DNA of 64,000 bases, taken from Alphaproteobacteria bacterium (GTDB taxonomy: Bacteria; Pseudomonadota; Alphaproteobacteria; Micropepsales; Micropepsaceae). Position 1 is the stretch's first letter, and every line of letters begins with the position of its first letter. The DNA lies in the NCBI GenBank assembly GCA_025924715.1, contig JAICHV010000011.1, forward strand, positions 1 through 64,000, in the 5' to 3' direction. Both the position numbers and the translations under genes were made by a program. Shown here one piece after another: positions 1,794-19,653 of this stretch. A model generated the notes under the pieces. The model saw only the letters and a program-made list of their open reading frames with translations. It searched no databases and had not been told where the DNA came from.

Positions 1794-2786
1794 ATGACCA
1801 CGCACCAAGCTCCCCTGGACCCCGCGTCCATGCCCGATACCACCGTCGATGCGGCGGCGGTGTTCGGCATCCAGACCAAGATGAAGGTCCCCGCCTTCAG
1901 CCGCGCCACCGAACAGGTGCCCGATCTCGACGAAGCCTATCGCTTCGACCGCGAGACCACGCTGGCGATCCTGGCGGGCTTTGCCTTCAACCGCCGGGTG
2001 ATGATCCAGGGCTATCACGGCACCGGCAAATCCACCCATATCGAACAGGTGGCTGCAAGGCTCAACTGGCCCTGCATCCGCATCAATCTCGACAGCCATG
2101 TCAGCCGTATCGATTTGATCGGCAAGGATGCCATCGTGCTGAAAGATGGCCAGCAGGTCACCGAATTCCGCGAAGGCCTTCTGCCCTGGGCGCTGCAGCG
2201 TCCGGTGGCCCTGGTATTCGACGAATATGACGCCGGGCGTCCCGATGTGATGTTCGTGATTCAGCGGGTGCTGGAAGCGCAAGGACGCCTGACGCTGCTG
2301 GACCAGAACAAGGTAATCCGGCCGCATCCGGCCTTCCGGCTGTTCTCCACCACCAACACCATCGGGCTGGGCGACACCACCGGGCTCTATCATGGTACCC
2401 AGCAGATCAACCAGGGTCAGATGGACCGCTGGAACATCGTCACCACCCTGAATTATCTCAGCCATGACGCCGAGGTCGAGATCGTGCTGGCCAAGGTGCC
2501 GGCCTATGCCGACGCAGCCGGGCGCAAGACCATCGCCTGCATGGTGCGGGTGGCGGATATGACCCGCAACGCCTTCATCAACGGCGATATCTCCACGGTG
2601 ATGAGCCCGCGCACGGTGATGACCTGGGCGCAGAATGCCGAGATCTTCGGCGATGTCGGCTTTGCCTTCCGCGTCACCTTCCTCAACAAATGCGACGAGC
2701 TGGAACGCGCCAGTGTGGCCGAATTCTATCAGCGCGCCTTTGGGGAAGAATTGCCGGAAAGCGCCGCCAAGGTGCTCGTGGCGTGA
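1794..2786 (+). CDS. cobS: Cobaltochelatase subunit CobS (AAA+ ATPase)
   Basis: 330 aa, the usual CobS length. It is a MoxR-like AAA+ ATPase of the aerobic ATP-dependent cobaltochelatase CobNST, which inserts Co2+ into hydrogenobyrinate a,c-diamide in aerobic B12 synthesis. Walker A is GYHGTGKST near residue 80; Walker B is LVFDEYDAG near residue 140; a sensor region follows (FSTTNTIG). The stop TGA overlaps the GTG start of the next gene by four bases. CobT lies one gene downstream. The same pair also occurs in genomes lacking a full B12 pathway, so the substrate here is by family. Confidence 0.95.
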
Positions 2787-3205
2787 ACGGGCGGCACGTT
2801 CGGGGACTGATTTTCTCCGCTTTTGTGCTCCTTTCGGTGCCAGTGCCAGTATCAGCCGCATTCGCTGCGGATATGCGGGGGAATTACTGGAAAGACTGGA
2901 ATGGAGCCGTGAAGCTTCAGTGCCCGTCTCATCATCTGGAATTGCTGGGTGATATCTATGATGAACTGATCGATAAATTTTCCAAGACGCTCCCTCGCTC
3001 TATAGACGAGAAGGCAATTTCGATTGCCGATTATTCGCGGCGATGTGCCGATGAAACAGCGGGCTTTAGTTGCGAGATGGCTGTCTATGTCGACGCCTAT
3101 AAGAAACTGGGTTTGCTAAAAAAGTTTACGCAATTCAGCTGCCGCCAGTACAAATGCCTTGAAGCCGCCTACTGCGTTGATCCCCGGACCGGCAAATTCC
3201 GATGA
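2783..3205 (+). CDS. Uncharacterised small secreted protein with six cysteines, inserted between cobS and cobT
   Basis: 140 aa from a GTG at 2783 that overlaps the cobS stop (GTGA); its own stop overlaps the cobT ATG (ATGA at 3202-3205). That double coupling fixes both ends and argues for real translation. A hydrophobic stretch ([20 protein letters not shown]) followed by ADMRG looks like a signal peptide, leaving about 110 periplasmic residues. The mature part holds six cysteines ([28 protein letters not shown]), which could form three disulfides. The coding sequence is visibly AT-richer than cobS and cobT, suggesting later insertion. I recognise no family. A periplasmic protein inside a cytoplasmic chelatase operon is odd. 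Confidence 0.75.
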
Positions 3206-5037
3206 AACCTGAAAACCCCTCCGAGCCTTTCAAGCGTGCCGTCTCCGTCGCGGTGCGCAGCCTCGCGGGCGAGCCGGAGCTGGAAGTCAATTTCTCCTCC
3301 GAGCCGCCTTCGCTGAAAGGCCTGAAGGCCCGCCTGCCCACGCCCACCCGCACCCTGCCCGCCCATGAAGTGGCGCTGGTGCGCGGCGTCGGCGATGCCT
3401 ATGCCCTGCGCAAGGCCTATCACGACGAAAAAGTGAACGCCCAATTCCGCCCCGCCACCGCCGATGCCGGCGCGATTTTCGAGGCGGCGGAATCGGCGCG
3501 GGTCGAAGCCATCGGCTCTATCGCCATGGCCGGGGTGCGCAAGAATCTGGCGGCCGGACTGGAACAGCGCCTGACCCAGCGCGGTCTGGCCAAGGCGCGC
3601 ACCCGCGAGGAAGCGCCGATCGCCGACGTCATGGGCCTGATGGTGCGCGAGCGGCTGACCGGCGAGAAACCGCCGGCCAATGTCGCGGCCGCGGTCGATC
3701 TGTGGCGTCCCTTTATCGAAGAGCGCGCCGGCAAGGACCTGGCGCGGCTGGAGGGCGCCTTGCGCGACCAGAAGGCCTTCGCCCGCCTGACCCGCACCAT
3801 CCTGAAAGACCTGGCGCTGGGCGATGATGCCGACGGCTCTTCCGATGACGAGTCCGAAGGCGAGGACAACGAAAGCCAGGAGGGCGGCGAGGAAGAAGAC
3901 GACAGCCGCGCCCAAAGCGAGAGCGAGGCCAGCGAAACCAGCGAGGACAAAAGCGAGGACGGCGAAGACAGCGATGTCGAAACCAGTCCCGAACAATCCG
4001 ACGACCTCTCCGACGCCGAAGAACCCGACGAAGGCATGAAGCCCAACCGGTCCGAGGCGCCGTTCTCGCATCAGGACGAATGGGGCTACAAGGTCTATAC
4101 CGCCCAGTTCGACGAGGAAATCCACGCCCCCGATCTTTGCGATGCCGAAGAGTTGACCCGGCTGCGCTCGTTCCTGGACCAGCAATTGGCCTCGATGCAG
4201 GGCGTGGTGTCGCGGCTGGCCAACAAGCTGCAGCGGCTGCTCTTGGCGCAGCAAAACCGGCATTGGGAATTCGATCTGGAAGAAGGCATGCTCGACACCT
4301 CGCGCCTGCCCCGCATCATCATCGATCCGATGTATCCGCTGTCCTTCAAGCGCGAGAAAGACACCAATTTCCGCGACACGGTGGTGACCCTCCTGCTGGA
4401 CAATTCCGGCTCGATGCGTGGCCGTCCCATCATGGTGGCGGCGATGTGTGCCGATATCCTGGGCCGTACCCTGGAGCGCTGCGCCGTCAAGACGGAAATC
4501 CTGGGCTTCACCACCCGGGCCTGGAAAGGCGGCCAGTCACGCGAGAAATGGCTGGGCGAAGGCAAGCCCGCCAATCCCGGCCGGCTCAACGATCTGCGCC
4601 ATATCGTCTACAAATCCGCCGACGAGCCCTGGCGGCGGGCGAAAAAGAATCTCGGCCTGATGATGCGCGAGGGGCTGCTGAAAGAGAATATCGACGGCGA
4701 GGCCCTGATGTGGGCCCATAACCGCATCATGGCGCGGCCCGAACAGCGCAAAATCTTGATGGTGATTTCCGACGGCGCGCCGGTGGACGATTCAACCTTG
4801 TCGGTCAATGCCGGCAGTTATCTGGAGCGCCATCTGCGCCGGGTGATCGACGACATCGAAAACAAATCGCCGGTCGAGCTCACCGCCATCGGCATCGGCC
4901 ATGACGTGACGCGCTATTACGCCCGGGCCGTCACCATCGTCGATGCCGAGCAATTGGGCGGTGCGATGACGACCCAGCTCATCTCGCTGTTCGAGGAAGA
5001 CGCGGCGCACGAACGCCATGCCCGCCGCAGGGCCTGA
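3202..5037 (+). CDS. cobT: Cobaltochelatase subunit CobT
   Basis: 611 aa, matching CobT size. It partners CobS as the chaperone-like component of cobaltochelatase. The layout is typical: an N-terminal CobT domain (to about residue 210), a very acidic Asp/Glu/Ser linker (about 210-275), then a C-terminal von Willebrand A domain. The MIDAS motif is visible as [10 protein letters not shown] near residue 400, and [10 protein letters not shown] follows around residue 528. The ATG overlaps the upstream gene's stop, so translation is coupled to the small secreted protein rather than directly to cobS. Confidence 0.95.
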
Positions 5038-13580: not shown

Positions 13581-14983
13581 GTGTCTATACAAGACTGAAA
13601 CAGGTGGTGGGCGAAAAGGGCTTCAGCGAAGACCCGGCCGACATCGCGCCTTATTTGAAAGAGTGGCGCGGCAAATATGAAGGCCACACCCCGCTCCTAT
13701 TGAAGCCGGCTAGTACCGACCAGGTCAGCGCCATCCTGACCATCTGCCATGAGACCGGCACGGCGCTGGTGCCGCAGGGCGGCAATACCGGCTTGGTGGG
13801 CGGACAATTGCCGCTGCGGGGCGAGGTGCTGCTGAGCCTGACGCGGATGAACAAGATTCGCGGTATTGATACCGCCGGCATGACGCTGACGGCGGAGGCC
13901 GGGGTGACGCTGGCGGGCGCCCAACAAGCCGCCGCCGATGTTCAGCTGCTCTTCCCCTTGACCCTTGCCTCCGAAGGCAGTTGCACCATCGGCGGCAATA
14001 TCTCGACCAATGCCGGCGGCAATCATGTGCTGCGCTATGGCATGATGCGGGCGCTGGTGCTGGGGCTGGAAGTGGTGCTCGCGGACGGGCGGGTGCTGCC
14101 CATGCTGAAAAGCCTGATCAAGGACAATAGCGGCTACGACCTGAAGCAGATATTCGTCGGCGCCGAAGGCACGCTGGGGGTGATCACCGCCGCCAGCCTG
14201 AAACTTTTCCCACGGCCGGCGCAGACCGTGGTCGCGTTTGCCGCCATCCCGGACCCGCAAGCGGCGGTGATGCTGCTGTCGTTGCTGCAGGGCGAGACGG
14301 GGGGAATGCTGTCGGCCTATGAATTGATCCCGCGCTTTGGAATGGATCTGGTGCTCAAACATATTCCCGGCACCCGCGACCCGCTGGCGGTACCCTCGCC
14401 CTGGTATGTGCTGATCGAAGTCGCCGGCGGCGCCCAGAACCTGGATGTCCTCACAGCGGCGGCGTTGGAAGAGGCGATGGGTCAAGGCTTGATCACCGAC
14501 GGCCTGGTGGCGCAGAACCAGGCGCAGGTGCGCGAGTTGTGGCGCATCCGAGAAACGATCTCGGAAGGGCAGAAACGCGAAGGCGCCTCGATCAAGCACG
14601 ATATTTCGGTGCCGGTGACCGCGATTCCCGCCTTTGTGGAAAAAGCCACGGCGGCGGTGCTGGCGGCGTTTCCCGGTGCCCGCCCCTGCAGCTTCGGCCA
14701 TGCCGGCGACGGCAATCTGCATTTCAATTTCAATGCGCCGGTGGGGCGCGACGCGGAATTCCTCGCCCAGTGGGATGAAATCCAACTCGTCGTCCATGAT
14801 ATCGTCAAGGAATTCGCCGGCTCGATCAGCGCCGAACACGGCATCGGCACCATGAAGCGCGATCTGCTGCCCCGCTACAAAAGTCACGAAGAACTGGACG
14901 CGATGCGGATGCTGAAGCAGGCCTTCGATCCCAAGAACATTCTCAATCCCGGCAAACTGGTGCCGACGGTGAAGCGGCTTTAG
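13577..14983 (+). CDS. FAD-binding oxidoreductase, GlcD / D-2-hydroxyglutarate dehydrogenase type
   Basis: 468 aa. A PCMH-type FAD domain comes first (VPQGGNTGLVGGQ near residue 70, SCTIGGNISTNAGG near 135). A FAD-oxidase C domain follows, with CSFGHAGDGNLHFN near residue 375 and SAEHGIGTMKRD near 420. The family oxidises D-2-hydroxyacids (D-lactate, glycolate, D-2-hydroxyglutarate). Sequence alone does not tell which; the intact HAGDGNLH motif favours a D-2-hydroxyglutarate or D-lactate enzyme. Translation is coupled to sua5 by ATGA. Its stop overlaps the convergent VOC gene by four bases (TTAG). Confidence 0.88.
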   Translation: MSVYTRLKQVVGEKGFSEDPADIAPYLKEWRGKYEGHTPLLLKPASTDQVSAILTICHETGTALVPQGGNTGLVGGQLPLRGEVLLSLTRMNKIRGIDTAGMTLTAEAGVTLAGAQQAAADVQLLFPLTLASEGSCTIGGNISTNAGGNHVLRYGMMRALVLGLEVVLADGRVLPMLKSLIKDNSGYDLKQIFVGAEGTLGVITAASLKLFPRPAQTVVAFAAIPDPQAAVMLLSLLQGETGGMLSAYELIPRFGMDLVLKHIPGTRDPLAVPSPWYVLIEVAGGAQNLDVLTAAALEEAMGQGLITDGLVAQNQAQVRELWRIRETISEGQKREGASIKHDISVPVTAIPAFVEKATAAVLAAFPGARPCSFGHAGDGNLHFNFNAPVGRDAEFLAQWDEIQLVVHDIVKEFAGSISAEHGIGTMKRDLLPRYKSHEELDAMRMLKQAFDPKNILNPGKLVPTVKRL

Positions 14984-15453
14984 CTTTCCCGTTCCATCCG
15001 TATCAACCGGTCCTGGTCCTTGCGTCCACGCAGGAAGATCGCGCGGGCATCGGGCCGCTCCCAATAAATCTCCAAGACATTGCCGTCGGGATCGCAGAAA
15101 TAAATGCTTTCCTGGCTTTCATGATCGACCGCCGCCAGGACGCGCACCTTGCGGTCGGTGAGTTCGAAATAGGCCTGCCGCAATTCGCCGGCACTGGCGA
15201 CCGGAAAAGCGACATGCGCGATGCCGAGCGACGGCTTCAAATCCGCCAACGATTGTGGGACCACCGGCGGCGGCAAGCCCCCCATCGGCACCAGATCGAT
15301 GACATGCGAGCCTTCGCCGAGGGTCAGGAACAACCCGCCATGCTCGGGATCGTCTTCCAGGACTTCGAACCCCAGCACGCCGGTATAGAAGTCCTTGGAA
15401 CGGGCCAAATCATGCACGGCGATCAGGACATGGCCTATTCCCGTCAAGCGCAT
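14980..15453 (-). CDS. VOC superfamily (glyoxalase-like) protein
   Basis: 157 aa from the ATG at 15453, which directly begins the fold and has a GGGGGT upstream; an in-frame ATG at 15477 would add eight residues. Two beta-alpha-beta-beta-beta modules are visible: GHVLIAVHDLARSKDFYTGVL, and later GIAHVAFPVASAGELRQAY. Likely metal ligands are the His of GHVLIAVHD, the His of IAHVAF and the Glu of VLEIYWE. Members include glyoxalases, extradiol dioxygenases and resistance proteins; the substrate here is unknown. Confidence 0.85.
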   Translation of the reverse strand: MRLTGIGHVLIAVHDLARSKDFYTGVLGFEVLEDDPEHGGLFLTLGEGSHVIDLVPMGGLPPPVVPQSLADLKPSLGIAHVAFPVASAGELRQAYFELTDRKVRVLAAVDHESQESIYFCDPDGNVLEIYWERPDARAIFLRGRKDQDRLIRMERES

Positions 15454-15513
15454 GATGACGACCCCCGTTGCCGACATCCGACATTAAATGCCAATCCGCA
15501 AGGCGTGAAGGGA

Positions 15514-18174
15514 CTAGGCCGCTTTGGGCAGCTCCGGCTCGACCTCGGCGGGGGCCGCGGCCAGGATCGCTTTTTTGTTCGACATCGCGCTGATGCTGGC
15601 GGTGGCGAAGGTGGCGGCATAGGGAAGGCTTTGCACGCCCAGCATCACCATCCACAAGCTCACCGCCGGATCAAGGAAGCCGCGGTCGAAGCCCATCGAG
15701 GCCATCGCCGCCAGCAGCAGCGCCAGCAGCACCGTTTCCTGCCACACCACCCGCAGCACTTGGCTAAAACGGGCCGGATCGGCGCATTTGGGCGTGCGCA
15801 GGAAAGGTTTGCCCGAAATGAACAGCCCCGCCCACATCGCCTTGCCCACCGTATGGGTCAGGGCAAGACCCGCGACCGCCGCCATCGCCGCGCCCTTGAA
15901 GCCGGAGCGCACCTTGGGCGGATAAAGCACCAGAGTCTTGAGCATCTTGGTGGCGAACAGCGCCATCGCCGCCGCCGACAGCGCCGGCATCGGCACATCG
16001 ATGGCGCCGGGCGCCGCCCACATCAACACGGTCCACACCAGCGCGGTCAGTGTCACCACCATGCCCAGGCCGTCGGAAATCCAGGGCAGCCAGCCGGAAA
16101 GGAATTGATAGCGCTGGTTCCAGGTCAGCTCTGACCTGCCGAGAAAAATCTCCTTGGCGTGCCGCTTCATGATCTGCATGGCGCCATAGACCCAGCGATA
16201 GCGCTGCGACATGAAGGCTTCCAAAGTGTCGGGCTCCAGCCCCGATCCCATGCTTTGGGGAATATAGGCGGCGTGATAGCCGGCCTCGAAAATGCGCAGG
16301 CCCAGCTCGGTATCTTCGGTGATGCACCATTCCGACCAGCCGCCGACCTCATGCAGCGCCTTTTTGGAGACGATGGTCATGGTGCCGTGCTGGATGATGG
16401 CATTGTGTTCGTTGCGCTCGACCATGCCGATATGGAAGAAGCCGCGATATTCCTGATAGGCCATCGCCTTGAAGATGTTCTCGCGGTGATCGCGGTAATC
16501 CTGCGGCCCCTGCACGATGGCGATATCGGGCGCGGCGAAATAAGGCATGCAGCGGCGCAGCCAGAACGGCGCCACCTGATAATCGCTGTCGATCACCGCG
16601 ACATGCGTGGCAGCGGAATCGGTCAGCGCCAAAGCGCGGTTGAGGGCACCGGCCTTGAAACCGGCGATCCTGTCGAAATGGAAAAAGCGGAAACGCTCGC
16701 CAAGCTGGGCGCAATGCGCTTCCACCGGCCGCCACACCGCCGGATCGGACGTGTTGTTGTCCAGCACGATGACTTCGAAATTGTCGTAGTCCAGCCGCGC
16801 CAGGGCATCCAGGGTCTCGATCACCATGGCCGGCGGCTCGTTATAAACCGGCACATGGATCGAGACGCGGGCCGAGCGCGCCGGTATAGCGGCATGCATG
16901 ACCCGCCGGTCCACCCGCCACAGGCTGGAGGCCAGCTCGATCCCTTCGGTCAGGATGATGGCGCAGGCCAGCAGCACCAAAGGCGACATCGCGATCATGG
17001 CGGCGATATCGGTGGGGTCGATATATTCCAGCGCCGTGGCGTCGATCAGCGCCAGCAGCCCCGTCGAGACCAGCGCGATCAAGCCGCCCATCACCAGATA
17101 GCCGGTCTGGCGCACCCGCGGCATGCGGCCCAGCACCAGCAGGCCCAGCGCCAGGGTCAGCGCGGCGGCCAGAAGGGCATAGATGCGCCATTGCGGGAAA
17201 GACCGCAGCAAGCCGGTGAAGGCGAATTTGGGATGGCCGGTAGCGTCGAACAGCCCCCAATAGGCTTCGACGCCGCCGCCCGCCGCGGTGCTTTTCCACG
17301 GCGAGTCGTACGCCTCCATGATGTAATAATCATAACCCTTTTCCATCGCCCGCTGGACGAAAGCCCTGAGGAAATAGGCCTCGTTCGCGGTGGTCGCTTC
17401 GGCCCGGCCACGGGTGCGCCCTTCCGAAGGCCAGCCGACTTCGCCGATGATGATCGGCTTGCCCGGGAACGTGCTCTTCATCGTGGCAAAAGCGCTGTCG
17501 ACGAAATGGATACCGTAGGAGACGTGGCTGTTCTCCCAATAGGGGAGCAAATGCACGAAGATCACATCGACATGTTCGGCGATCTGGGGATTGAGCAGCC
17601 AGGTGGTCCAAGGCTCCGCCGTCGTCACCTTGATCCGCGCCGGCAGTGCGTTGCGCACCCGCAGAATATAGGCGTTCAACTGTTCGGCCGAGACCAGACC
17701 GAACAACTGGGTTTCATTGCCGACGATCACCCGGTCGATGGTCCGCCGGTTCGCCAGCGCGGTCTTGATGCCCAATTCGATCTGCTGTTCGTTCTTTTCC
17801 AGATCGGGCGACAGCCAGATTCCCAGCGACACGGTCATGCCGTAATGGCGGGCGATCTCCGGCACCTTGTCCATGCCGCCGTCCACCGTATAGGTGCGGA
17901 TATGGCCGGTGATTGTGGAAAGCTGGCGCAGATCGCGGTCGATCTGCTCCGGCGTCACCGCCAGCATGGATGACACGGAAAAGACGTGGCTGGGATTATA
18001 GGCGATGCCCCGCACCTGCCCGTCCCAATCGGGCGCCATCACCGTGTAGTCGCGGCTGGCCCAGAACAGGCCCGTCGCGCTCAGCACCATCACCAGGGCG
18101 ACAGCGATGCGCAAGCGGCCGCCGCGCGTGCGCGACGTCCACATTCCATGCATGAAGTGCGCGAAGCGTGTCAC
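15514..18174 (-). CDS. Membrane beta-(1,3)-glucan synthase: GH17-like domain fused to GT2
   Basis: 886 aa. After one N-terminal membrane segment a GH17-like glucanase/transglycosylase domain lies outside (about 50-310); both family glutamates are present (VGNETQ near residue 150, IIGEVGWPSEG near 243). Several membrane helices follow (about 325-410), then a cytoplasmic family 2 processive glycosyltransferase domain. It has VIDSDYQV near 528, ITEDTELG near 619 and QRYRW near 657, i.e. the D, TED and Q..RW signature. C-terminal membrane helices close the protein. The architecture matches NdvB/NdvC-type enzymes of Bradyrhizobium and Pseudomonas that make cyclic or branched beta-1,3-glucans, so a periplasmic or exported glucan is expected. 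The FKBP gene lies just upstream (12-base gap), probably in the same operon. Confidence 0.85.
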   Translation of the reverse strand: MTRFAHFMHGMWTSRTRGGRLRIAVALVMVLSATGLFWASRDYTVMAPDWDGQVRGIAYNPSHVFSVSSMLAVTPEQIDRDLRQLSTITGHIRTYTVDGGMDKVPEIARHYGMTVSLGIWLSPDLEKNEQQIELGIKTALANRRTIDRVIVGNETQLFGLVSAEQLNAYILRVRNALPARIKVTTAEPWTTWLLNPQIAEHVDVIFVHLLPYWENSHVSYGIHFVDSAFATMKSTFPGKPIIIGEVGWPSEGRTRGRAEATTANEAYFLRAFVQRAMEKGYDYYIMEAYDSPWKSTAAGGGVEAYWGLFDATGHPKFAFTGLLRSFPQWRIYALLAAALTLALGLLVLGRMPRVRQTGYLVMGGLIALVSTGLLALIDATALEYIDPTDIAAMIAMSPLVLLACAIILTEGIELASSLWRVDRRVMHAAIPARSARVSIHVPVYNEPPAMVIETLDALARLDYDNFEVIVLDNNTSDPAVWRPVEAHCAQLGERFRFFHFDRIAGFKAGALNRALALTDSAATHVAVIDSDYQVAPFWLRRCMPYFAAPDIAIVQGPQDYRDHRENIFKAMAYQEYRGFFHIGMVERNEHNAIIQHGTMTIVSKKALHEVGGWSEWCITEDTELGLRIFEAGYHAAYIPQSMGSGLEPDTLEAFMSQRYRWVYGAMQIMKRHAKEIFLGRSELTWNQRYQFLSGWLPWISDGLGMVVTLTALVWTVLMWAAPGAIDVPMPALSAAAMALFATKMLKTLVLYPPKVRSGFKGAAMAAVAGLALTHTVGKAMWAGLFISGKPFLRTPKCADPARFSQVLRVVWQETVLLALLLAAMASMGFDRGFLDPAVSLWMVMLGVQSLPYAATFATASISAMSNKKAILAAAPAEVEPELPKAA

Positions 18175-18186
18175 CGTCGAAAAGCC

Positions 18187-18732
18187 TTATGGCTGCTGAT
18201 CAGCGTCCTTGTCCGTGGGATCGGGACGATAGTCCGGGTCGCCACGCTTGGGCGCCGGCTTGGTCGAGATCAGGCGCAGATCGAAGACCAATGTCTGGTT
18301 CGGGGGAATGCTGCCATCGGGGGCACCGCGATTGCCATAGCCCAGTATGGCGGGGATCACGAGCTGCCAATGATCGCCTTCACGCATCAGCTGCAACGCC
18401 TGGCTCCAGCCGGGAATGAGGTCGGCGACCGGGAAAGTGGCGGGAAGGCCCGGTGAAGTGCCGTCGAACACTTTGCCGTTGATCAAACTGCCGGTGTAAT
18501 AGACCACCACCGTGTCTGTGGCGCCTGGCCGCTTGCCGAAGCCGTTCTGGATGATGCGATATTGAAGGCCACTCCCGTTGGAGAGGACATGCACCCCGGG
18601 CTTCTTGGCATTGGCGGCCAGAAAGGCCTGGTTGGCTTGCGCGCTCAAGGCATCGTCGGCCGCCATGGCCGGGAGAGCCGCGAACGTCATCAAGGACGCG
18701 GCCAGCGCCCACACAAAAGCCAAACGCGTCAT
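18187..18732 (-). CDS. Periplasmic FKBP-type peptidyl-prolyl cis-trans isomerase
   Basis: 181 aa with a signal peptide (FVWALAASLMTFAALPAMA then ADDALS). The short dimerisation-like helix (NQAFLAANAKKPGV) precedes a single FKBP domain with VVYYTGSLINGKVFDGT, VIPAILGYGNRGAP and LVFDLRLI. It catalyses proline isomerisation during folding of exported proteins. It lies directly upstream of the glucan synthase. Confidence 0.93.
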   Translation of the reverse strand: MTRLAFVWALAASLMTFAALPAMAADDALSAQANQAFLAANAKKPGVHVLSNGSGLQYRIIQNGFGKRPGATDTVVVYYTGSLINGKVFDGTSPGLPATFPVADLIPGWSQALQLMREGDHWQLVIPAILGYGNRGAPDGSIPPNQTLVFDLRLISTKPAPKRGDPDYRPDPTDKDADQQP

Positions 18733-18841
18733 TCTTAAAACCTCCGTAACCCCGCGGGCCCGCGCAAATTACCGCGCCGGCCGGGCATGCTCCTAGCCCC
18801 TTGGGAGAGGAAACCCAAGGTTTTTGGCGAATTTAAGGGGT

Positions 18842-18994
18842 GAGGCCGAAAAAGGGAAAGCTCCAGTGGAGCTTTCCTCGGCCGAACGCCGAGCCCGCGT
18901 CAGCGGGCGATGGCCGGAGGAGGCCGAAAAAGGGAAAGCTCCAGTGAGCCTTCCCCGGCCGAACGCCGAGTCCGCGAAGGCGGGCGAAGGCCGG
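18842..18994. repeat. Two tandem copies of an imperfect 78-base repeat
   Basis: Unit one begins at 18842 and unit two at 18920; both start GAGGCCGAAAAAGGGAAAG, continue CTCCAGTG and contain GGCCGAACGCCGAG and a CGGGCGA-GGCCGG end. They differ by scattered substitutions and small indels. The repeat fills most of the 273-base gap between the FKBP and LysE genes. It codes for nothing convincing and is likely a dispersed intergenic element. Confidence 0.75.
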
Positions 18995-19005
18995 ACAGCG
19001 TTAAT

Positions 19006-19653
19006 TCAGAAGACCTTGATGACCAGATTGACCAGCACCGCCGCCCCGAACAGCAGCACCATCAGGCCGGTCACCCGGTTGATCATCTGCATGGCGGCAT
19101 CGTCGATCCGGGCATGGAACAGGCCGATGACCGTGGTCAGGACCAGCCACCAGGCAGTCGAGCCCAAGACCACGCCGGCGACCACGAGGCTGGCGTCAAC
19201 ATAGGACCCCGCCCCACCCGCCAAGCCCCCAAGGCCCGTGAACATCAGGGTAAAAGCCAGCAAAGTGGCGGGATTTGTCACGGTCAGGGCGAAAGTGGAG
19301 GCGAACGCCCGGGCCAGGGAGGTGCCGCCGCGGTCGGTTTTGTCGTCGCAGTCCACCCGCGGCAAAACCGGGGCCATCAGGATGCGGAAGCCGAAATAGA
19401 CCAGCAGGGCGCCGCCGATCAGTTCGATGATGGTGGTGTAGCTTTTGATCAACTGCGCCACCCAGGTCAGGCCCAGCCCCATCACCGCGGCGAAGATGCC
19501 GTCGCCCAGGGCTGCGCCCAGGCCGGAAACGAAGCCATTGAGCGGGCCATAAGCGAAGGTGCGTCGCACGCAGATCAGATTGACTGGACCGATCGGGACG
19601 GCAGCAATCAGCCCCATCACCACGCCGGAAAAGATCAGGATCAGATAATTCAT
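19006..19653 (-). CDS. LysE family amino-acid exporter
   Basis: 215 aa from the ATG at 19653 (MNYLILIFSGVVMGL), preferred over an in-frame ATG at 19683 that lies inside a repeat copy. About six membrane helices are visible. The N-terminal PIGPVNLICVRRTFAYG motif is typical for LysE/RhtB translocators, which export amino acids or small metabolites. A polar loop with DCDDKTDRGG separates the two halves. Substrate unknown. Confidence 0.88.
   Translation of the reverse strand: MNYLILIFSGVVMGLIAAVPIGPVNLICVRRTFAYGPLNGFVSGLGAALGDGIFAAVMGLGLTWVAQLIKSYTTIIELIGGALLVYFGFRILMAPVLPRVDCDDKTDRGGTSLARAFASTFALTVTNPATLLAFTLMFTGLGGLAGGAGSYVDASLVVAGVVLGSTAWWLVLTTVIGLFHARIDDAAMQMINRVTGLMVLLFGAAVLVNLVIKVF

What the first reader, a model, noticed from the sequence alone, without database searches (positions are those of the whole stretch)
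2783..3205. Unknown secreted Cys-rich protein wedged between cobS and cobT
The gene shares four-base overlaps with both neighbours, so it is translated as part of the chelatase operon. Yet it has a signal peptide, six cysteines and lower GC. A periplasmic factor in a cobaltochelatase operon is not something I know; it might bind cobalt or the corrin precursor, or simply be an inserted gene kept in frame.
Basis: partly seen in the sequence, partly recalled or inferred. Interest (0 to 1): 0.55.

Follow-up and report, generated by a model that had tools for sequence, protein, structure and literature searches.

The report
Foreign six-cysteine gene inside cobST operon
A small foreign gene for an exported six-cysteine protein has landed exactly between two cobalt-chelatase genes of one bacterium; its few known relatives sit elsewhere, some behind genes for cell-wall-cutting toxins, so it is more likely a stray protective (immunity) gene than a cobalt-handling part.

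Summary
A 140-residue ORF at 2783-3205 (+) overlaps cobS (GTGA) and cobT (ATGA) by four bases each. It has an evident signal peptide, six cysteines and GC 0.513 (GC3 0.56), against GC3 about 0.82 in both neighbours.

It is probably not a chelatase part. None of 59 other readable cobS-cobT junctions in the genus has it. I found five relatives: one in G023, two identical copies in G066, one in another class (G630) and one on an acidobacterial conjugative plasmid. CobS and CobT do not match in the DNA read around them. Five distinct sequences share all six cysteines. Pfam, NCBIfam, PHROGs and the PDB give no credible match, nor do Tai4 or Rap1a immunity profiles.

In two of four other sources the gene follows a wall-hydrolase-like gene: a glucosaminidase-like gene in G023, and in G066 the endolysin-like tip of a giant RHS protein, in a duplicated cassette. 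I read it as an orphan or accessory periplasmic immunity protein, inserted in this lineage and coupled to cobS. Insertion is well supported; immunity is inferred. Against a fixed pairing, G048 has a related tip and DUF4431-like partner without the six-cysteine gene.

The parts
1794..2786 (+). cobS, cobaltochelatase ATPase subunit; its end supplies the start context of the inserted gene (AAGGTG at 2769-2774, a possible ribosome site)
   Evidence: PF12556/PF07728; sequence
2783..3205 (+). inserted gene for an exported 140-aa six-cysteine protein; candidate orphan periplasmic immunity protein
   Evidence: ORF; relatives; invariant Cys; GC3 0.56
2783..2869 (+). probable signal peptide (residues 1-29)
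   Evidence: read by eye from the translation
2870..3202 (+). mature domain with Cys 47, 88, 97, 120, 125, 131 (full-length numbering)
   Evidence: alignment A3
2783..2786 (+). GTGA overlap: start of insert / stop of cobS
   Evidence: sequence
3202..3205 (+). ATGA overlap: start of cobT / stop of insert; TGAA occurs at both edges (2784-2787 and 3203-3206)
   Evidence: sequence
3202..5037 (+). cobT, cobaltochelatase subunit
   Evidence: PF06213, PF11775

Best explanation
A horizontally acquired gene for an exported, three-disulfide (inferred) protein inserted at the cobS-cobT start/stop junction in this one lineage. It is now translated as part of the operon by start/stop coupling. Its most likely job is to sit in the periplasm and neutralise a peptidoglycan-cutting antibacterial toxin delivered by competitors, i.e. 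an orphan or accessory immunity protein (a wall-hydrolase inhibitor), kept because the operon gives it steady expression. Shown: the ORF, the overlaps, the foreign composition, the absence from the other readable genus junctions, the unlinked relatives, the invariant cysteines, and a position behind wall-hydrolase-like genes in two genomes. Inferred: export, disulfides, coupling, and above all the immunity function and its target.
For: Insertion: GC3 0.56 against 0.82; the family is absent from 59 of 59 other readable junctions; among the 96 genomes searched in the order only 3 have it, after one chance match was dropped; a relative sits on an acidobacterial conjugative plasmid. Immunity: in G066 the gene lies behind a giant RHS protein (PF05593 E 7.8e-42, LysM E 2.7e-4). 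The C-terminal tip of that protein resembles tail-lysin/endolysin families (phrog_2276 E 8.8e-9, phrog_873 E 2.8e-4; an annotated phage endolysin 33.8%). A secreted DUF4431-like gene and then the six-Cys gene follow. The cassette [tip, DUF4431-like, six-Cys] is duplicated downstream, beyond primase-like and tyrosine-recombinase-like genes (by eye). In G023 it follows a glucosaminidase-like gene on the same strand, 195 bases away (PF01832 E 6.6e-5, below cut-off; PDB endo-beta-N-acetylglucosaminidase E 0.0012).
Against: G048 carries a related tip (40%) and DUF4431-like partner (33%) but no six-Cys gene. The DUF4431-like protein is therefore the better candidate for cognate immunity, and the six-Cys gene may be a passenger in G066. 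The two neighbouring hydrolases (endolysin-like, glucosaminidase-like) differ in type. The G630 and plasmid copies, and the window itself, have no evident toxin beside them. No Tai4/Rap1a similarity. The glucosaminidase and DUF4431 assignments are below Pfam's cut-offs. The structure model is useless (pLDDT 45.9). G000, G023 and G066 show no T6SS sheath gene, so the delivery route is unknown, and G000 has no relative of the G066 tip.
Confidence: 0.45

Rival explanations
1. A mobile exported six-Cys protein with some other envelope role (for example a general lysozyme inhibitor or stress factor) that by chance lies near hydrolase genes in two genomes; the insertion is real but the immunity reading is wrong.
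For: The window, G630 and plasmid copies stand without an evident toxin neighbour; G048 has the toxin tip and partner without it; no known immunity family matches.
Against: It is duplicated together with an RHS toxin-tip cassette in G066 and lies behind a second hydrolase-like gene in G023.
Confidence: 0.4
2. A periplasmic accessory factor of cobaltochelatase or cobalt/corrin handling.
For: Position between cobS and cobT with start/stop overlaps on both sides.
Against: CobS/CobT do not match around the five relatives; 59 of 59 other readable genus junctions lack it; CobNST chelation is cytoplasmic (recalled, from no call), whereas this protein appears exported; its codon usage is foreign.
Confidence: 0.05
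3. A decaying, non-expressed passenger of no function that happens to keep both neighbours in register.
For: Only the window's genome has it among the 60 readable junctions; no close orthologue was found that would allow a test of selection.
Against: Intact frame, intact-looking signal peptide, all six family cysteines kept at 22-33% identity to relatives, precise overlaps on both sides.
Confidence: 0.1

Closest known systems
Orphan immunity genes and arrays of T6SS systems (PMC5361080, PMC12247911; abstracts seen)
   Same: A toxin-less immunity-type gene kept away from its toxin, spread by horizontal transfer
   Different: Those sit in T6SS clusters or recombinase-associated arrays and have identified effectors; this one is alone inside a housekeeping operon and its target is unknown
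Rap1a (PF18602; role as periplasmic amidase immunity recalled)
   Same: Small exported cysteine-containing proteins
   Different: No profile similarity (hhalign probability 1.8%); different cysteine pattern
Tai4 (PF16695; role as amidase immunity recalled)
   Same: Small exported proteins of similar size
   Different: No profile similarity (probability 0.3%, only two rows); different cysteine pattern
RHS polymorphic-toxin cassettes with C-terminal tip and downstream immunity (general scheme recalled)
   Same: The G066 relatives lie in such a cassette, with a duplicated displaced tip
   Different: The six-Cys gene is third in the cassette, behind a DUF4431-like gene, and is absent from the G048 cassette

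Membership tests
Cobaltochelatase accessory (CobNST) protein | conserved linkage to cobS/cobT | tested here: not met
   0 of 59 other readable junctions have it; no CobS/CobT match in the DNA read around the five relatives
Polymorphic-toxin/T6SS immunity protein (functional class) | gene directly behind a toxin gene | tested here: inconclusive
   Near hydrolase-like genes in G023 and in both G066 copies (third in the cassette; one split off by an insertion sequence); not evident in G630, the plasmid or the window
Polymorphic-toxin/T6SS immunity protein (functional class) | located in the compartment attacked (periplasm for wall hydrolases) | tested here: inconclusive
   Signal peptides evident by eye in the five aligned sequences; no predictor or experiment
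Polymorphic-toxin/T6SS immunity protein (functional class) | binds and neutralises a toxin | not testable with these tools
   -
Rap1a (PF18602) | match to the family profile | tested here: not met
   Not among hmmscan hits of the five members; hhalign probability 1.8% against 5 of the 19 Rap1a matches collected
Tai4 (PF16695) | match to the family profile | tested here: not met
   Not among hmmscan hits; hhalign probability 0.3% against both Tai4 matches collected
T6SS-linked immunity | T6SS in the same genome | tested here: not met
   VipB PF05943 not found in G000, G023 or G066, found in G630; G000 is a draft, 92.9% complete; the T6SS of G630 was not examined further

The most novel reading that the evidence does not exclude
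The cobS-cobT start/stop junction of this genus is a recurrent capture site where unrelated small exported or membrane-protein genes become translationally coupled to a housekeeping operon. In this species the captured gene belongs to an undescribed family of periplasmic wall-hydrolase immunity proteins that moves between phyla.
Probability: 0.3. Interest if true: 0.55.

Novelty: new member of a known kind. Interest (0 to 1): 0.36.

Why it matters
If it is an immunity protein, it shows how an orphan immunity gene can gain expression by landing in the four-base overlap of a housekeeping operon, outside any defence island or array. It would also add a six-cysteine family, unnamed in the libraries searched, to the known periplasmic immunity proteins. 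It further corrects a tempting annotation: operon position alone would have made it a cobalamin gene.

Tried and rejected
Family libraries gave no credible match for the protein: Pfam (best chance match E 0.038), NCBIfam, PHROGs, PDB by sequence (best E 0.46) and by profile (best E 0.2, an antibody). The other members also have no credible Pfam match. PADLOC was not searched. Pattern-based scans of genome contigs and viral contigs found no relative; these scans need short conserved stretches and are weak for so divergent a family. Phage tblastn gave 9 records at E up to 1, best E 0.08, none convincing. Single-sequence structure prediction gave pLDDT 45.9, so I did not search folds with it.

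Weak profile matches dropped after reading them: G030 and G876 (frames that read as non-coding); G689 (internal stop, antisense to a Dus-like gene by eye); G1096 (looks like lipoyl synthase by eye); G1235 (partial, 17.8 bits, 74-aa open frame, reads as non-coding); G1256 (internal stop). G1235 rescored at 20.2 bits; I still do not count it, but cannot fully exclude it. The other matches (E 0.03-1) were also not counted.

I considered the NPGN-type tip of G066 as the cognate toxin. G048, which has a tip and a DUF4431-like partner but no six-Cys gene, argues against a fixed pairing. The plasmid genes with similar tips show no six-Cys family member within the 8 kb fetched (profile search).

Full report
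What is there. The ORF at 2783-3205 on the + strand encodes 140 residues starting at GTG. It shares GTGA with the cobS stop and ATGA with the cobT start. CobS and CobT are secure. The protein starts with a basic, hydrophobic stretch ending in AAFAA, read by eye as a signal peptide, and its mature part holds six cysteines. GC is 0.513 and GC3 0.56, against GC3 0.816 (cobS) and 0.815 (cobT). Pfam, NCBIfam and PHROGs give no credible match, nor do sequences of solved structures.

Relatives. Searching the 96 genomes of the family with the protein, and the 96 of the order (the same handles) with a profile, gave three genomes with convincing matches: the window's own genome G000, G023 (32%, E 6.2e-13) and G066 (two copies, E 7.6e-6). 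A class-wide draw of 385 genomes gave only G000. A phylum draw of 398 added G630 (E 3.2e-18 with a profile lacking it). Draws round G630, 295 and 312 genomes, added nothing that I count. In 72,556 plasmids there was one match, on the conjugative plasmid pACIX905 of Granulicella tundricola, an acidobacterium (37%, E 3e-16). In 50,697 phage records the best was E 0.08. Aligned, five distinct sequences share all six cysteines, plus P48, E53, L55 and G94, as invariants, at 22-33% identity to the window protein. So this is a real, rare, widely scattered family.

Not a chelatase gene. CobS was found in 63 of 69 genomes of the genus (64 matches, since G045 has two). I read 63 cobS 3' ends (30 loci, 33; one N-terminal fragment, G073, was left out). 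Of these, 60, the window included, also held the cobT start. The three others are two contig ends (G056, and one G045 copy) and G027, where about 1.2 kb after cobS holds no cobT start but an opposite-strand, epimerase-like gene (by eye). In 22 of 60 the genes overlap by 4 or 1 bases, in 12 the gap is 5-21 bases, in 11 it is 47-79 and in 15 it is 104 or more. Several of the longer gaps hold palindromic elements (by eye). None of the other 59 holds the six-cysteine family (profile search of the loci then held). In a cobS+cobT tree of the 30 loci, the window's genome lies in a clade of nine (support 0.885) whose other eight have gaps of -4 to 58 bases. The insertion is therefore specific to its branch among these genomes; the exact sister group is unresolved (support 0.494). 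In the DNA read around the five relatives (19.5 kb in G023, 36.5 kb in G066, 19 kb in G630, 12.3 kb of the plasmid) CobS and CobT have no match up to E 0.1, and in G023 and G066 cobS lies elsewhere. TGAA occurs at both edges of the insert (2784-2787, 3203-3206), which fits an insertion into an overlapping GTGA/ATGA junction of the kind seen in relatives, but this is an inference from four letters.

What the neighbours of the relatives say. In G066 a giant RHS protein (open from L108:12134 into L033:5969, about 3,600 residues; PF05593 E 7.8e-42 and a LysM domain in the 1,983-residue part scanned) ends in a domain with an NNPGNLR motif. That domain resembles phage tail-lysin and endolysin families (phrog_2276 E 8.8e-9, phrog_873 E 2.8e-4; an annotated endolysin of an Acinetobacter phage at 33.8%). 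One base later a secreted DUF4431-like gene starts (PF14485 E 0.0064, below its cut-off), and then, after an insertion sequence (identified by eye), the six-Cys gene. The cassette, without the insertion sequence, is repeated at 99.9-100% identity downstream, with primase-like and tyrosine-recombinase-like genes (by eye) between the copies. In G023 the six-Cys gene follows a glucosaminidase-like gene on the same strand (below cut-off; PDB support), with 195 bases between. This is the layout of polymorphic-toxin cassettes with downstream immunity genes (general scheme recalled), and a periplasmic protein is what would be needed against a wall-cutting toxin. In G630 and on the Granulicella plasmid no toxin is evident beside the gene.

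Results against. G048 has a related RHS tip (40%) followed by a related DUF4431-like protein (33%, E 3e-28) but no six-Cys gene. In 46 genus genomes searched for the tip only G048 had it; G066 was not in that draw. The DUF4431-like gene is therefore the better candidate for the tip's cognate immunity, and the six-Cys gene in G066 would be an added or stored immunity gene, or a passenger. G000 itself has no related tip. No T6SS sheath gene was found in G000, G023 or G066. Profile comparison with 5 of the 19 Rap1a matches and both Tai4 matches collected here shows no relation; some rows were read on the wrong strand by my script and were not used. The structure model was not usable.

Mechanism proposed. 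The inserted frame starts at the position where cobT starts in the 18 of 60 junctions with a four-base overlap, so it inherits the cobS-embedded start context (AAGGTG eight bases ahead). It hands translation on through ATGA to cobT. The product is exported, folds with three disulfides and binds an incoming peptidoglycan hydrolase. The first part rests on sequence; coupling, export, disulfides and binding are inferred. I put the immunity reading at 0.45 and an unspecified envelope role at 0.4.

Literature. Orphan immunity genes and arrays are known: I saw the abstract and start of the introduction of PMC5361080 (Vibrio cholerae) and the abstract of PMC12247911 (Bacteroidales rAID arrays). Of the other papers I saw listings only. 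Searches for cobS/cobT operon papers (six papers listed, none opened), DUF4431 (none) and the Granulicella protein accession (none) showed me no description of this family or of an immunity gene inside cobST. That is a statement about those searches of open-licence papers only.

Novelty. As a functional kind, orphan immunity is known, so I file it as a new member of a known kind, with the family itself unnamed in the libraries searched and the operon position unusual.

Noticed in passing
cobS-cobT junctions: L056 (G025), L068 (G035), L102 (G024), L075 (G044): Four other junctions hold small ORFs that look different from each other and from the window's: 67-aa and 75-aa two-TM-like proteins, a 92-aa membrane/secreted-like protein and a 218-aa secreted cysteine-containing protein; none reaches a Pfam cut-off. 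The junction looks like a recurrent insertion site.
   Followed up: partly
cobS-cobT junctions, e.g. L046, L050, L052, L066: Short palindromic elements (ATCCCCGC...GCGGGGATCCAGT type, by eye) sit between cobS and cobT in several species.
   Followed up: no
L033:18-6510 and L137:915-2394: RHS tip with an NNPGNLR endolysin-like domain plus a secreted DUF4431-like partner in G066 and G048: a candidate effector-immunity pair of its own.
   Followed up: partly
L033:5008-11128 and 14878-19501: Near-identical duplication of the toxin-tip cassette; one copy is split by an insertion sequence, with primase-like and tyrosine-recombinase-like genes (by eye) between the copies.
   Followed up: partly
L103 (G027:C30): In G027 the cobS end is followed by an opposite-strand epimerase-like gene instead of cobT within the 1.2 kb read: a rearranged junction or assembly break.
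   Followed up: no
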